DNA from: Dehalobacter sp. DCA
GTDB lineage: Bacteria; Bacillota; Desulfitobacteriia; Desulfitobacteriales; Syntrophobotulaceae
Assembly (NCBI RefSeq): GCF_000305775.1
Contig: NC_018866.1
Location: forward strand, 868,001 to 932,000
Reading direction: 5' to 3'
DNA length: 64,000 nt
Both the position numbers and the translations under genes were made by a program. The notes beneath the pieces were generated by a model. The model saw nothing but the letters and a program-made list of their open reading frames with translations. It was not told the DNA's origin and did not search any database. This document shows positions 28,941-64,000 of the stretch, piece by piece. The stretch's first letter is position 1; each line of letters opens with the position of its first letter.

Positions 28941-29972
28941 CTATTTACTTTCTGATTCACAAAACAGTCCCGGCTGTACATTCGCCGGAAGATCCAGTCC
29001 AAAATAGCTGTAGACCTGGTTCGTTACCATTCTGCCTCTTGGTGTCCGCTGCAGAAAACCTCTCTGCAGCAAAAATGGTTCCACAACATCTTCCAGGGTC
29101 TCGGACTCTTCACCTACAGTAGCAGCCAGCGTTTCCAGACCGACCGGTCCTCCGTCAAAATTCCGGATAATGGCCAGCAGAATTTTCTGGTCCAAACTGT
29201 CCAGGCCCATCGGATCAACTTCAAGCTTATCCATTGCTTTAGCTGCCGTCTGAGAATCAACAATCCTGCTTCCCCAGAACTGCGCATAGTCCCTTACCCT
29301 TTTGAGCAACCTGTTGGCGACCCGCGGTGTCCCTCTGGAACGCTTGGCGATCTCCTCCGCTCCGTCCGGCGACAAATCCACTTTCAGGATCCGGGAAGCC
29401 CTGACGACGATCTGCAGCAGTTCCTCCGTCGTATAAAATTCCAGCCGGCTGATGACCCCGAACCTGTCCCTCAAAGGAGACGTCAGCTGCCCGGCTCTGG
29501 TCGTCGCACCAATCAGCGTAAACGGAGATAGGGACAGCCTGATGGAACGAGCGCTCGGTCCTTTACCAATCACGATATCCAGACAGTTATCTTCCATCGC
29601 GGAATACAGGACTTCTTCCGCTGTCCTGCTCAGACGGTGGATCTCATCTATAAACAGCACATCGCGCGGTTCGAGTGAAGTCAAAAGTGCCGCCAAATCT
29701 CCCGGCCTTTCAATCGCCGGTCCGGAAGTCGTCCGGATATTGACTCCCATCTCGGCCGCAATAATATTGGCTAGTGTGGTCTTTCCGAGTCCGGGCGGAC
29801 CATAAAGAAGGACATGATCGAGAGCCTCTCCCCTGTTCTGGGCCGCCTGAATAAAGACGCTTAAGTTTTCTTTGATACTTGCCTGTCCGATATATTCCAT
29901 CAGCCTGCCCGGTCTTAAGGCTTCGAATTCCCGGTCTTCAGGACGCTCCAGGGAAGTGATGACTCTTTCCAA
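28941..29972 (-). CDS. ruvB: Holliday junction branch migration ATPase RuvB
   Basis: This 343-residue AAA+ motor drives branch migration together with RuvA. It has [23 protein letters not shown], Walker A ([12 protein letters not shown]), Walker B ([12 protein letters not shown]), sensor 1 ([19 protein letters not shown]) and the C-terminal winged helix (FLQRTPRGR). TTG at 29972 is chosen because AAAGGAGG lies seven bases upstream and the resulting length is normal. The longer ATG frame reads back through a structured repeat and adds 49 atypical residues, so it is rejected. Repeat copy 5 ends 49 bases before this start. Confidence 0.95.
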
Positions 29973-30021
29973 GTTGGTTCCTCCTTTAGTGAATGAAGTT
30001 ACTATCGACTTGCTCGGGCTT

Positions 30022-30128
30022 GTCTCTGTAATGGATGACCGCTTTCGGCAGATAGCGCCCTCCATGGCGCTAACAGCCGCGCTGCGCAATCCATGCTCCG
30101 CTTGGCGCTGGCCATCCATTACAGAGAC
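30022..30128 (-). repeat. Structured intergenic repeat, copy 5 (107 bp)
   Basis: Ends GTCTCTGTAATGGATGACC and GGCCATCCATTACAGAGAC pair over 19 bp with one mismatch. On the minus strand it has AGCGGAGCATGGATTGCG then CAGCGCGGC, an internal hairpin TAGCGCC/GGCGCTA, and GCCGAAAGCGG. Relative to copy 3, both the outer and the inner stem differ at paired positions but stay complementary. It lies in the ruvB leader. Confidence 0.85.
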
Positions 30129-60327: not shown

Positions 60328-61119
60328 TTACCACCTTTCATGAGTGGCGTACGTTTCAACCGTCGTCATATTCGTCTTGATAACAGGCGGCCACTCTTTA
60401 AGCCTTTCGACCATATTTTCTGCAAGCCGGCTCGCGTCTTTATTGCATTTTTCCTTTACCGCCGGATCAAGTCTGGCCAGTTGGCCGAGCGCTGTCAGCA
60501 GTTCGTAGAATGTATCGGCGATAGTTTTGCAGCAAGCGGCGCATTTTTCTTCATACTTTGTGGTAAAGGTTGAGGGGACTGCAGTTTTTGGCCCACTTTT
60601 TGGTTTGTCGGTTTTTTTGACGGTTATATATTCTATTTTGATATCCTGAGGATTATTTGGTATGGGGGTGACTTGAGCCTGCACTTTCTCCGGAGCAGTT
60701 TGGTTCCGTTCTTTGAGAGTCTGACCAAGCTCCCGGGAAGTCATATCTTTAACATCATGCTGCAGGATAAATTTCTCCCGCTCATCTTCCGGAATCCCCA
60801 GAAGAAGGAGGGCCTGATAGTAGGTCAAATTCGTCAGCGCTGACGAATTTGAGTTCCCCCCGTCATCGACGGAAACGAACAGTTTATCTCCATATTCTTC
60901 AAAGAGCTGCATTAGTCTGTTGGCTGTGCGCTGGGAATAGCTCACCGATTCGATCAACCATTTTCCCCATTCTCCATGCGGAAGCAGGGCCTTGGCCTCC
61001 TTCAGGCGCTTGCCAACCTCAATGGCATTGGTAAGCATGATTTTACATGTCTGTTGTTTGATCCTATTAATCTCAGCCGCGATAACAAGCGGCGTACGTT
61101 CAGTGATTGGTTCATTCAT
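60328..61119 (-). CDS. DUF3102 domain protein
   Basis: This 263-residue soluble protein has in its first 140 residues the DUF3102 pattern: EINRIKQQTCKIMLTNAIEVGKRLKEAKALLPHGEWGKWLIESVSYSQRTANRLMQLFEEY, then TYYQALLLLGIPEDEREKFI. The middle is Pro/Lys-rich and the last 90 residues (EEKCAACCKTIADTFYELLTALGQLARLD) are a helical domain with a CAACC motif. The family is frequent in phages, plasmids and integrative elements of Firmicutes and has no assigned role. AAAGGCGGG precedes the ATG. Confidence 0.85.
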   Translation of the reverse strand: MNEPITERTPLVIAAEINRIKQQTCKIMLTNAIEVGKRLKEAKALLPHGEWGKWLIESVSYSQRTANRLMQLFEEYGDKLFVSVDDGGNSNSSALTNLTYYQALLLLGIPEDEREKFILQHDVKDMTSRELGQTLKERNQTAPEKVQAQVTPIPNNPQDIKIEYITVKKTDKPKSGPKTAVPSTFTTKYEEKCAACCKTIADTFYELLTALGQLARLDPAVKEKCNKDASRLAENMVERLKEWPPVIKTNMTTVETYATHERW

Positions 61120-61244
61120 TTTGATTCCCGCCTTTTTGGTAGCTTTAATTACAGCATACGTAGACGGGCTTCGGATGGTGAAGGCTTGAGTATAAACGCT
61201 AGCGAATGAATTTACATACCGAATAAATACCGAATAAATTTACC

Positions 61245-61273
61245 TTGTCAAATTATATATTCTATGATATCAT
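61245..61273 (+). promoter_or_regulatory. Promoter of the small-ORF unit
   Basis: TTGTCA and TATCAT are separated by 17 bases in an AT-rich spacer. Just upstream, ACCGAATAAAT occurs twice in tandem (61218-61239), a possible regulator site. Confidence 0.55.
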
Positions 61274-61299
61274 TAGATTTTATGAAAGGTGGTGTGCAT

Positions 61300-61404
61300 T
61301 TGAGCAAGAAACAAATTAATATAATTGAAGAAATTCTCGCTTCAGTTGGGCTTGAATCTTTAAAAGCTTCTGAGTCAAAGAATGTCCTCAAAAAAATCTC
61401 CTAA
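61300..61404 (+). CDS. Putative 34-residue small protein
   Basis: TTG at 61300 follows AAAGGTGGT by six bases and opens 34 codons reading MSKKQINIIEEILASVGL then ESLKASESKNVLKKIS. An in-frame ATG at 61282 gives six more residues but lacks a site. The peptide is helical, charged and lacks a signal sequence. It is flanked by a promoter and a strong terminator, so it looks like its own transcription unit, lying between the divergent-side end of the DUF3102 gene and arr. I do not recognise it. It could equally be an RNA gene in which the frame is incidental. Confidence 0.4.
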   Translation: MSKKQINIIEEILASVGLESLKASESKNVLKKIS

Positions 61405-61415
61405 AAAGGGGCGTG

Positions 61416-61442
61416 ATGAAAAATGATGCTAATTTCATATAG
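61416..61442 (+). CDS. Possible 8-residue peptide after the small ORF
   Basis: ATGAAAAATGATGCTAATTT begins an eight-codon frame (MKNDANFI) ending in TAG, four bases after AAAGGGG. The site is good but the frame is so short that chance is likely. It lies in the same unit as the 34-residue frame. Confidence 0.2.
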   Translation: MKNDANFI

Positions 61443-61459
61443 CCAAACCTTAAGTGAGT

Positions 61460-61498
61460 AAAAACGAGTTCCTGATTAAAAATTAGGAGCTCGTTTTT
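61460..61498 (+). terminator. Strong terminator closing the small-ORF unit
   Basis: AAAAACGAG and CTCGTTTTT, extended by TCCT/AGGA, make a 13-14 bp stem around GATTAAAAATT, with a T run. The following 190 bases to arr hold nothing recognised. Confidence 0.85.
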
Positions 61499-61690
61499 TA
61501 TTATGTTACTCTGAAAGGAAAAAGGAAGGTTAGTTTGAGATAATTAAGGTACATATGTCTTTGGGAATTTGCTCACCTTATAAGGAAATCCACAAAAAAT
61601 GCCGATTTATCCATTGTTATTGGCCTCTAAGCAATTTCTTATTTGTAATTGACTTATGAATTTATCAGTATTTTTGACATCATCAATCTT

Positions 61691-62125
61691 TTATTCGTCG
61701 ATTGCCTCGATTCCGAGCCGTTTAAGCTTGTCAAGGTGATATCGCATGTTTTTGAGCTCCTCCGGAGAGTGCCCCTTCCAGTCTAAAACCTCGCCCATTA
61801 CTCGTAGTGGGCGTTGGGTTCGGTAGGATCTCGTTGGATTCCCTGGAAACTTCTTGTCTGTCAGATTAGGATCATCCTCGATGGGACCTGTGGGCTCTAC
61901 ACGATAGATTCGACCGGGTCCGTCGCCCACTGCCAGTTCCGCTCCCCACGTTGCCGCATCCAATGTCGCAGTCAGATAGACGTAGTTGGCCTTCTTTCTC
62001 TCGCCATAATTAGAGCTATAGCCAGGTTCCAGCATGTCTCTCGCCTTCAGGTCGGCTTTGGTGCCGTGGTAGAAAGGTCCGTGATCCATTGTTTTAGACG
62101 GTGTCCGTTCGTTCTGTATATTCAT
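61691..62125 (-). CDS. arr: Rifampin ADP-ribosyltransferase
   Basis: This 144-residue protein transfers ADP-ribose from NAD+ to rifampicin and inactivates it. It matches the Arr family end to end: GPFYHGTKADLK (NAD site with His20), EPGYSSNYGERKKANYVYLTATLDAATWGAELA, GRIYRVEPTGPIEDDPNLTDKKFPGNPT and GEVLDWKGHSPEELKNMRYHLDKLKRLGIEAI. AAGGA lies six bases before the ATG. It is a single gene in an accessory zone near an insertion sequence, consistent with transfer, although intrinsic chromosomal arr genes are also known. Resistance in this host is predicted, not shown. Confidence 0.93.
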   Translation of the reverse strand: MNIQNERTPSKTMDHGPFYHGTKADLKARDMLEPGYSSNYGERKKANYVYLTATLDAATWGAELAVGDGPGRIYRVEPTGPIEDDPNLTDKKFPGNPTRSYRTQRPLRVMGEVLDWKGHSPEELKNMRYHLDKLKRLGIEAIDE

Positions 62126-62512: not shown

Positions 62513-62844
62513 CTATATCAACTCTTTGTTCAATTGGATTTTGGTCCCTTGTTTTAGTGATTTGGCAAGTCGAAATCCAAGGTCATCTATTCGAAATGTT
62601 GGATGACCCCGACGACGATTTGTTGCTAAACAACCTCTTTCAGGGTCAAACCAACCGCCACCACGAAAAATTCGATAAGGACCATATACTTTCTCATCAT
62701 AGATATCCCAACACCATTCCCAGACATTTCCTAACATATCATACAATCCCCATGCATTCGGCTCTTTTGTCCCTACTTCATGTGTTCTACCTTCAGAATT
62801 TTCTTTATACCATGCAATCTTATTAACTGAAGTTTCGCACCCAT
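62513..62844 (-). pseudogene. Formylglycine-generating-enzyme (SUMF1)-domain protein, C-terminal fragment
   Basis: About 105 codons encode the C-terminal part of an FGE/SUMF1 sulfatase-modifying-factor fold: NKIAWYKENSEGRTHEVGTKEPNAWGLYDMLGNVWEWCWDIY, YRIFRGGGWFDPERGCLATNRR and DDLGFRLAKSL. The N-terminal half is absent. Upstream of codon GCETSVNK the sequence becomes the left flank of an insertion sequence. The catalytic second cysteine region of true FGEs is not evident, as in many bacterial relatives that bind metal or cofactors differently. The gene appears to have been broken by the IS. Confidence 0.8.
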
Positions 62845-64000
62845 AAAACAGCCGAAAATTCGGCTTAGAATAAGACGAAAAAACGATAAAAATCCGCATG
62901 AACACTAGGTTTTTGGTATAATAAGATGCTACTCCAAATCAACCAAAAATGAGGTGTTATCATGCGGAAACCTGTCAAAGAAATTGAAAACGTACTCCAA
63001 AATCACGGCTATTCGATTAACAATATTATATGTGAAGTTATGAAGACGTTCAAGCTTAAAACGCTTTGCCGCAAAGTTGGTTTTCTGAAACAGGATGGTT
63101 ACAGTTCCGCGGAAATCCTCTCACTAATGTTGATGTTGCCCCTAATGTTACTGAAAAGTGTCCACGCGTTATATAAAAGCGATTTCCAAAAGGTTACTAC
63201 TATGAAGAAAGATTCCATATATCGACTGAAGAACAATGAAAAAATGCCTTGGAGAGCATTGCTGATCGGTATATCCAAACAGTTTCAACGATTGGTTAAT
63301 CCTACGAACGAAGTGGATGAAAAGTCCGCTTTCATTCTAGATGATACAACTCTTGCTAAGACAGGTCGAAGAATTGAACAAATGACCCAGGTGTTTGACC
63401 ATGTTGCAGGGAAGAAAGGTAGCAAATTAGGCTTTAAAAATTTAACCCTTGGTTTCTTCGATGGTAAAAGCCTCACGCCTATAGACTTCACTTTACAAGT
63501 GGAAAAGCCCTTAAAAAAGGCAAGGCACCGTAAAGAACGGTTCAAAAAGCAACGAGACCCCAAATCTGCTGGGGCTAAACGGATCAGAGAATGCCATGTT
63601 AGCAAAATTTCGAACGGTCTGGATATGATAAAACGGGCGGTAAAACAGGGGTTTAAGGCTAAATATGTCCTGGTTGACAGCTGGTTCAGCAGTTACGAGT
63701 TCATTCAAACGATTCGAGGATTAGACAAAAAATCGATGCATTTGGTCTGTGGTGTTCGGCAAGATACGAGGAAGTATCGCTACAAAGAGACTTCCCTTAA
63801 TGCCAGCCAATTAAAATCGGTCCTCAAAAGTGAGGGAAACGAAAAACGCTGTAGGAAACGGAATATCCGTTATTTCGAAGTCCTTGTTGATTATGAAGGA
63901 ATCGGACAAATCAAACTGTATTTTTGCCGGTTTCCCTATCAAAAGAAATTTAGACTGTTCCTCTCGACGGATATATCTCTTAGTTTATTGAGTATGTTGG
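62842..64000 (+). mobile_element. IS4-type insertion sequence, right part outside window
   Basis: The left border is placed near 62842, where the SUMF1-like coding sequence stops. The first bases include the palindrome AGCCGAAAATTCGGCT and a TATAAT box at 62917. A transposase gene follows and runs off the window. The right end and the target duplication are not visible, so the borders are approximate. Confidence 0.75.
62962..64000 (+). CDS. IS4-family DDE transposase, partial
   Basis: At least 346 codons are open to the window edge. It begins MRKPVKEIENVLQNHGYS after GAGGTG. The first catalytic aspartate region is FILDDTTLAKTGRRIEQM and the second YVLVDSWFSSYEF; the glutamate of the DDE triad would lie beyond the window. 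The Lys/Arg-rich segment KARHRKERFKKQRDPKS and the layout are those of IS4-like enzymes. No frame defect is seen, so the element may be active. Confidence 0.85.
   Translation, partial: MRKPVKEIENVLQNHGYSINNIICEVMKTFKLKTLCRKVGFLKQDGYSSAEILSLMLMLPLMLLKSVHALYKSDFQKVTTMKKDSIYRLKNNEKMPWRALLIGISKQFQRLVNPTNEVDEKSAFILDDTTLAKTGRRIEQMTQVFDHVAGKKGSKLGFKNLTLGFFDGKSLTPIDFTLQVEKPLKKARHRKERFKKQRDPKSAGAKRIRECHVSKISNGLDMIKRAVKQGFKAKYVLVDSWFSSYEFIQTIRGLDKKSMHLVCGVRQDTRKYRYKETSLNASQLKSVLKSEGNEKRCRKRNIRYFEVLVDYEGIGQIKLYFCRFPYQKKFRLFLSTDISLSLLSML

What the first reader, a model, noticed from the sequence alone, without database searches (positions are those of the whole stretch)
61245..61498. Self-contained mini transcription unit with a 34-residue frame
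A TTGTCA-N17-TATCAT promoter, preceded by a tandem ACCGAATAAAT repeat, drives a region with a well-placed ribosome binding site, a 34-residue charged helical peptide, a possible 8-residue peptide, and a strong terminator. It lies in an accessory zone beside DUF3102 and arr. It could be a regulatory peptide, a toxin-type peptide, or a small RNA. The repeat could be an operator.
Basis: partly seen in the sequence, partly recalled or inferred. Interest (0 to 1): 0.5.

Follow-up and report, generated by a model that had tools for sequence, protein, structure and literature searches.

The report
Travelling mini-operon for two micropeptides
A stretch of about 270 bases with its own start and stop signals encodes a 34-residue mini-protein and probably a second 12-residue peptide; it belongs to a widespread, unnamed small-protein family and appears to have moved between distantly related bacteria as one compact unit.

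Summary
In detail: promoter, ribosome site, 34-aa TTG-start frame and terminator lie at 61245-61498. The DNA 61233-61502 recurs 88-98% identical in eight other genomes (82 of the class searched). The ten full copies sit in six unrelated flank settings. One copy in another bacterial family is 95% identical where ruvB is 70%, so a unit of about 270-290 bp appears to have moved horizontally; how is unknown.

The 34-aa peptide belongs to an unnamed small-protein family (core IL.S[VI]GLE) without a Pfam or NCBIfam model. It is found in 48 of 82 class genomes and, more weakly, in eight further families of the phylum. Chromosomal members are under purifying selection (pN/pS about 0.12).

A second micro-ORF follows. 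In 11 of 12 divergent representatives it ends 1-4 nt before the terminator stem. The tandem repeat is private to this genome, so it is unlikely to be an operator.

A structured RNA is weakly supported. An attenuator is disfavoured, because the nearest downstream ORF is convergent in 9 of 10 copies.

Best reading: a horizontally moving bicistronic micropeptide operon whose ORF1, a predicted two-helix peptide, regulates an unknown partner protein.

The parts
61233..61502 (+). whole conserved unit (cassette)
   Evidence: 88-98% DNA identity in 8 other genomes; 10 full copies in 6 unrelated flank settings
61218..61239 (+). tandem ACCGAATAAAT x2, private to this genome, mostly outside the conserved unit
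   Evidence: absent in the other 9 copies
61245..61250 (+). -35 box TTGTCA
61268..61273 (+). -10 box TATCAT; TAnnnT kept in 9 of 10 copies
61284..61292 (+). ribosome binding site of ORF1 (GAAAGGTGG; GAAAGGAGG-like in most relatives)
61300..61404 (+). ORF1, 34 aa, TTG start, member of an unnamed small-protein family
61405..61411 (+). ribosome binding site of ORF2 (AAAGGGG), invariant in the 10 full copies
61423..61461 (+). ORF2, 12 aa (MMLISYSQTLSE), stop overlaps the foot of the terminator
   Evidence: intact in 10 of 10 full copies; position rule in 11 of 12 representatives
61460..61498 (+). rho-independent terminator, 18 pairs
   Evidence: one compensatory change seen by eye in the partial copy L058

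Best explanation
The unit is a stand-alone bicistronic mini-operon. A sigma-A-type promoter makes an RNA of about 220 nt that is translated into a 34-aa helical peptide (ORF1) and then, from a second ribosome site just after the ORF1 stop, into a 12-aa peptide (ORF2) whose stop codon touches the terminator. Shown by comparison: conserved unit, coding selection on the ORF1 family, transfer between genera. Well supported but not proven: translation of ORF2. Inferred: ORF1 acts in trans as a small two-helix regulator that binds a partner protein through the conserved IL.S[VI]GLE core, with its variable tail giving specificity between paralogues; ORF2 is made from the same message as a second, clade-specific peptide. 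The whole unit travels horizontally as a compact piece of about 270-290 bp between the window's genus and Desulfosporosinus; its mover is unknown.
For: Conservation and transfer: 61233-61502 is 95% identical in G046, of another family, and 88% in congener G004, while ruvB is 70% and 93% identical; p-distance 0.04 against 0.12. Ten copies in six unrelated flank settings; with the G046 locus as query, four other copies match with ends at 1117-1123 and 1406-1410. Coding: ORF1 core in 27 chromosomal copies pS 0.58, pN 0.073; in the 10 cassette copies only 0.165 and 0.079. ORF2: intact in 10 of 10 cassettes (pS 0.28, pN 0.027, few changes) and in 27 of 27 Desulfosporosinus chromosomal copies, with lengths of 66 or 69 nt only while the spacer before it takes 8 different lengths (16-36 nt); SD-preceded ORF ending 1-4 nt before the terminator stem in 11 of 12 representatives, chance 0.03-0.11 each. 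Two-helix model of ORF1: mean pLDDT 90.9. Nearest downstream ORF convergent in 9 of 10 copies, so the product acts in trans.
Against: No expression data. No partner gene: contexts differ. ORF2 pN/pS is only 0.62 in the chromosomal set (0.91-0.94 in shifted frames). The 3' part of the cassette is more conserved than ORF1 itself (0.04-0.05 against 0.09 mean difference), which a coding role alone does not explain. ORF1 pTM is 0.44 from a single sequence. The 10-copy tree is unresolved: no starred branch, one origin in Dehalobacter-labelled rows not ruled out although seen in only 7% of bootstraps. One copy, L058, lacks ORF1 and has a frame-shifted ORF2. No clean empty site was shown.
Confidence: 0.6

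Rival explanations
1. A regulatory small RNA (or dual-function RNA) whose conserved 3' segment 61393-61465 base-pairs with targets; ORF1 is secondary or a bonus product.
For: The 3' segment is the most conserved part of the cassette; L058 keeps a promoter-like stretch and the 3' part without ORF1; the ORF1-stop-to-stem region folds better than shuffles in most cassettes, and the second SD is paired more than in 99% of shuffles in 5 of 10.
Against: No pair with changes on both sides among 67 predicted in the cassettes; in 12 chromosomal relatives the second SD is not unusually paired in any (0 of 12 below 0.1); no Rfam family at gathering score; ORF1 selection is protein-level in the family.
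Confidence: 0.15
2. A peptide signal or a toxin/antitoxin-type module: ORF2 (variable between clades) is a pheromone or toxin, ORF1 its partner.
For: ORF2 sequences differ between clades but are kept within them; two small genes in one unit.
Against: No receptor, exporter or partner gene is constant beside the unit; neither frame shows a signal peptide or membrane stretch by eye; many family members have ORF1 without ORF2.
Confidence: 0.12
3. A leader peptide / attenuator: a ribosome stopping at the ORF2 stop blocks the terminator and lets transcription run into the next gene.
For: The ORF2 stop sits on the foot of the terminator; in the Desulfosporosinus chromosomal copies the next genes run in the same direction.
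Against: In the cassette copies the nearest downstream ORF is convergent in 9 of 10 (window arr; the rest); downstream genes differ between settings.
Confidence: 0.07
4. Chance alignment of signals in an AT-rich intergenic region.
For: The promoter match alone is close to shuffles.
Against: Ten conserved full copies and a family with coding selection.
Confidence: 0.01

Closest known systems
Stand-alone bacterial small-protein (sORF) genes
   Same: own promoter, SD, short ORF under purifying selection, terminator
   Different: second micro-ORF ending on the terminator; nearly intact unit shared between families at 88-98% DNA identity
Dual-function RNA genes such as B. subtilis SR1/SR1P (recalled, no call)
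   Same: short RNA carrying a peptide of about 39 aa and a conserved 3' part
   Different: no sequence relation known to me; RNA function here not shown
Sda / Spo0E small inhibitors of sporulation signalling (recalled)
   Same: tiny helical soluble proteins in spore-forming Bacillota, several paralogues per genome
   Different: no Pfam match to either; Spo0E motif absent; no constant kinase neighbour
Leader-peptide attenuators (recalled)
   Same: short ORF ending at a terminator
   Different: no co-directional gene after most cassette copies
MITEs / small non-autonomous elements (recalled)
   Same: short unit with sharp ends in unrelated settings
   Different: one copy in most genomes, no clear terminal inverted repeat or target duplication seen by eye

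Membership tests
unnamed IL.S[VI]GLE small-protein family (defined here) | ORF of about 26-45 aa with core [IV]..IL.S[VI]GLE.[IL] and SD | tested here: met
   window E 6e-18 with a model that includes it, single-sequence search E<1e-9 to 9 places in 8 other genomes
unnamed IL.S[VI]GLE small-protein family (defined here) | purifying selection on the frame | tested here: met
   27 chromosomal copies pN/pS 0.125; weaker, 0.48, among the young cassette copies
any Pfam / NCBIfam / PHROG family | match above the curated cut-off | tested here: not met
   29 members against Pfam (best E 0.053) and NCBIfam (best 0.18); three members against PHROGs, best E 0.025 for one member
Sda / Spo0E | match to the Pfam models | tested here: not met
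   neither listed for any of 29 members at E<=1
leader-peptide attenuator | co-directional regulated gene downstream of the terminator | tested here: not met
   9 of 10 full copies have a convergent nearest downstream ORF; met in the chromosomal relatives
structured sRNA | covarying secondary structure | tested here: not met
   0 of 67 pairs with two-sided change, covariation term +0.37; chromosomal set covariation 0.75
type I toxin | short hydrophobic membrane peptide with antisense RNA | not tested
   by eye ORF1 has no membrane stretch; no antisense RNA search was made
mobile element (MITE-like) | terminal inverted repeats, target-site duplication, empty sites | tested here: inconclusive
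   sharp ends but no repeats seen by eye and no clean empty site

The most novel reading that the evidence does not exclude
A self-mobile-looking gene cassette of under 300 bp, with no recombinase of its own, that carries a complete two-micropeptide regulator and belongs to a so far unnamed small-protein family spread through the phylum, in which translation of a second, fast-changing peptide is always placed to end on the terminator.
Probability: 0.35. Interest if true: 0.7.

Novelty: new variant of a known kind. Interest (0 to 1): 0.48.

Why it matters
It turns an unannotated intergenic stretch into a member of a conserved small-protein family that three curated libraries do not name, and gives sequences to test. 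The position rule for the second micro-ORF is directly testable, and the near-identical copies in different families raise the question of how so small a unit moves.

Tried and rejected
Rfam scan of the window: nothing at gathering score. Plasmid and phage records: only short weak pieces (best E 0.3 in 9 plasmid records, 0.09 in 6 phage records). Viral contigs: no match to the 3' pattern and no confirmed relative of the peptide. Genome-contig pattern scan: 2 stretches, both copies already held; near records may be left out. Solved structures: a 16-residue match to retron Eco8 reverse transcriptase, E 0.0021, taken as a chance helix match. Operator role of the tandem repeat: rejected. Constant partner gene: looked for in the neighbours of 43 family loci, of the cassette copies and of four second-type paralogues; the largest shared sets are the orthologous Desulfosporosinus/g16 locus (GNAT, reductase, DegV, named by eye) and none is general. 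Several loci lie near sensor kinases (L105, L204, L206, by eye), not counted against a background. Link with sporulation: SpoIVA is found in 336 of 398 phylum genomes, too common to be informative. SD2 sequestration and translational coupling: not supported outside the cassettes. Cassette tree: unresolved. Literature: listings only, no paper opened; exact core strings gave 0 papers, and no listed title concerns such a peptide.

Full report
WHERE. The window is bases 868001-932000 of a single-contig genome of 3,069,953 bases. I recall that this is the size of Dehalobacter sp. DCA; no call names it. Two relatives, G025 and G044, are Desulfosporosinus acididurans M1 and Desulfosporosinus sp. FKB, by matching contig lengths, so group f2/g12 is Desulfosporosinus.

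THE UNIT. Promoter 61245-61273, SD 61284-61292, ORF1 61300-61404, second SD 61405-61411, ORF2 61423-61461 and terminator 61460-61498. The own genome has one copy. In all 82 genomes held for the class, a DNA search finds 10 genomes with a match: the own genome, 8 with full or nearly full copies at 88-98% identity, and one (G027) with a weak 72% stretch that is a chromosomal family member. G029 has two copies, so there are 10 full copies in 9 genomes; G003 also has a partial copy, L058, with a promoter-like stretch and the 3' part but no ORF1.

HORIZONTAL MOVEMENT. Between the own genome and G046 (another family) the unit is 95% identical; with congener G004 it is 88%. For ruvB the figures are 70% and 93% (one gene as yardstick). 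Comparing 600 nt on each side, the ten copies fall into six settings without similarity to each other: G000/G001/G002; G029a/G044/G025 (G025 on the upstream side only); G046; G004; G029b; G003. With the G046 locus as query the other Desulfosporosinus copies match from 1117-1123 to 1406-1410, and the gene after it in G046 (nrdJ by eye) is matched in all 28 other Desulfosporosinus genomes searched without the cassette beside it. No clean empty site, inverted repeat or recombinase was found. The short tree is unresolved.

THE FAMILY. The peptide alone finds close matches (E<1e-9) at 9 places in 8 of 60 other genomes, and a weak tail of 33-45 aa frames. With 17 of these as a profile, 55 of 82 class genomes have a match at E<=1, and 48 at E<=1e-3 by my count of the table (the profile's rows come from these genomes). 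In 398 genomes drawn from the phylum, the class-only profile finds 15 genomes outside the class with E<=1e-3 in short frames, in eight families. One of these families, f14, rests there on a near-copy of an f18 locus, so transfer or contamination is possible. Sequences are listed. Each Desulfosporosinus genome tends to have several paralogues. No Pfam, NCBIfam or PHROG model reaches its cut-off.

CODING EVIDENCE. In 27 Desulfosporosinus chromosomal copies the ORF1 core has pS 0.584 and pN 0.073. In the cassette copies the pooled values are 0.165 and 0.079, so the cassette by itself shows only mild constraint. ORF2: the 12-aa frame is open in 10 of 10 cassettes, with pS 0.280 and pN 0.027 on few changes; in the chromosomal set pS 0.274 and pN 0.169, against ratios of 0.94 and 0.91 in the two shifted frames, which also hold 1-6 stops each. 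All 27 chromosomal copies have an SD-preceded ORF2 of 66 (7) or 69 (20) nt, while the distance from the ORF1 stop to its start takes the values 16, 21, 24, 25, 26, 32, 35 and 36. Among 12 representatives of different clades, 11 have such an ORF ending 1-4 nt before the stem; with the last six bases fixed, shuffles give 0.033-0.113 per case. These clades share ancestry, so the figures must not be multiplied as if independent. Copies in more distant families end with ORF1 and a terminator, and so does a second Desulfosporosinus paralogue.

RNA EVIDENCE. RNAalifold on the cassettes gives 67 pairs, none with two-sided change. The chromosomal 3' region has one possible two-sided change in one sequence. 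The second SD is paired more than in 99% of shuffles in 5 of 10 cassettes and below 5% in one more; in 4 cassettes and 12 of 12 relatives it is not unusual. I therefore read the strong 3' conservation mainly as coding plus translation signals, and mark the excess conservation as unexplained.

FUNCTION. ORF1 is predicted as two helices, residues 3-16 and 23-33, joined at GLES (single sequence, pTM 0.44). With a stand-alone promoter, convergent neighbours in 9 of 10 copies and no constant partner, a trans-acting small regulator is the most economical reading; the target is not known. This last step is inference.

Noticed in passing
window 30010-30119 (5' end of the ruvB-like ORF 28941-30119, minus strand): This stretch is a dispersed repeat: 38-48 matches per genome in the four congeners G001-G004, 73-110 bp, about 75-96% identical (candidates capped at 40, list cut). 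The long ORF start there is probably too far upstream.
   Followed up: no
window 60328-61188: The DUF3102 gene (PF11300) and a 43-bp stretch upstream of it have many close DNA relatives in the two genera. The ORF1-less copy L058 in G003 also lies beside a DUF3102-like gene (by eye), as does the G002 copy.
   Followed up: partly
window 61691-62125, minus strand: Arr-type rifampin ADP-ribosyltransferase gene (PF12120, E 4.8e-49), convergent with the unit; in G001 it lies directly after the unit, in G002 it is absent from the neighbouring ORFs.
   Followed up: no
window 62513-64000: Remnant of an FGE-sulfatase-like gene (profile positions 157-255 only) next to a transposase-like region at about 62960-64000 (by eye).
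   Followed up: no
L105:3-1349, L204:3963-5999, L206:3603-6001: Sensor-kinase-like genes lie near family members in several unrelated settings (by eye); no background was computed.
   Followed up: partly
upstream of the unit in L049, L051, L053-L056: Most other copies carry ACTTGTCTGG or a close variant about 20 nt before the -35 box, where the window has its tandem repeat.
   Followed up: no
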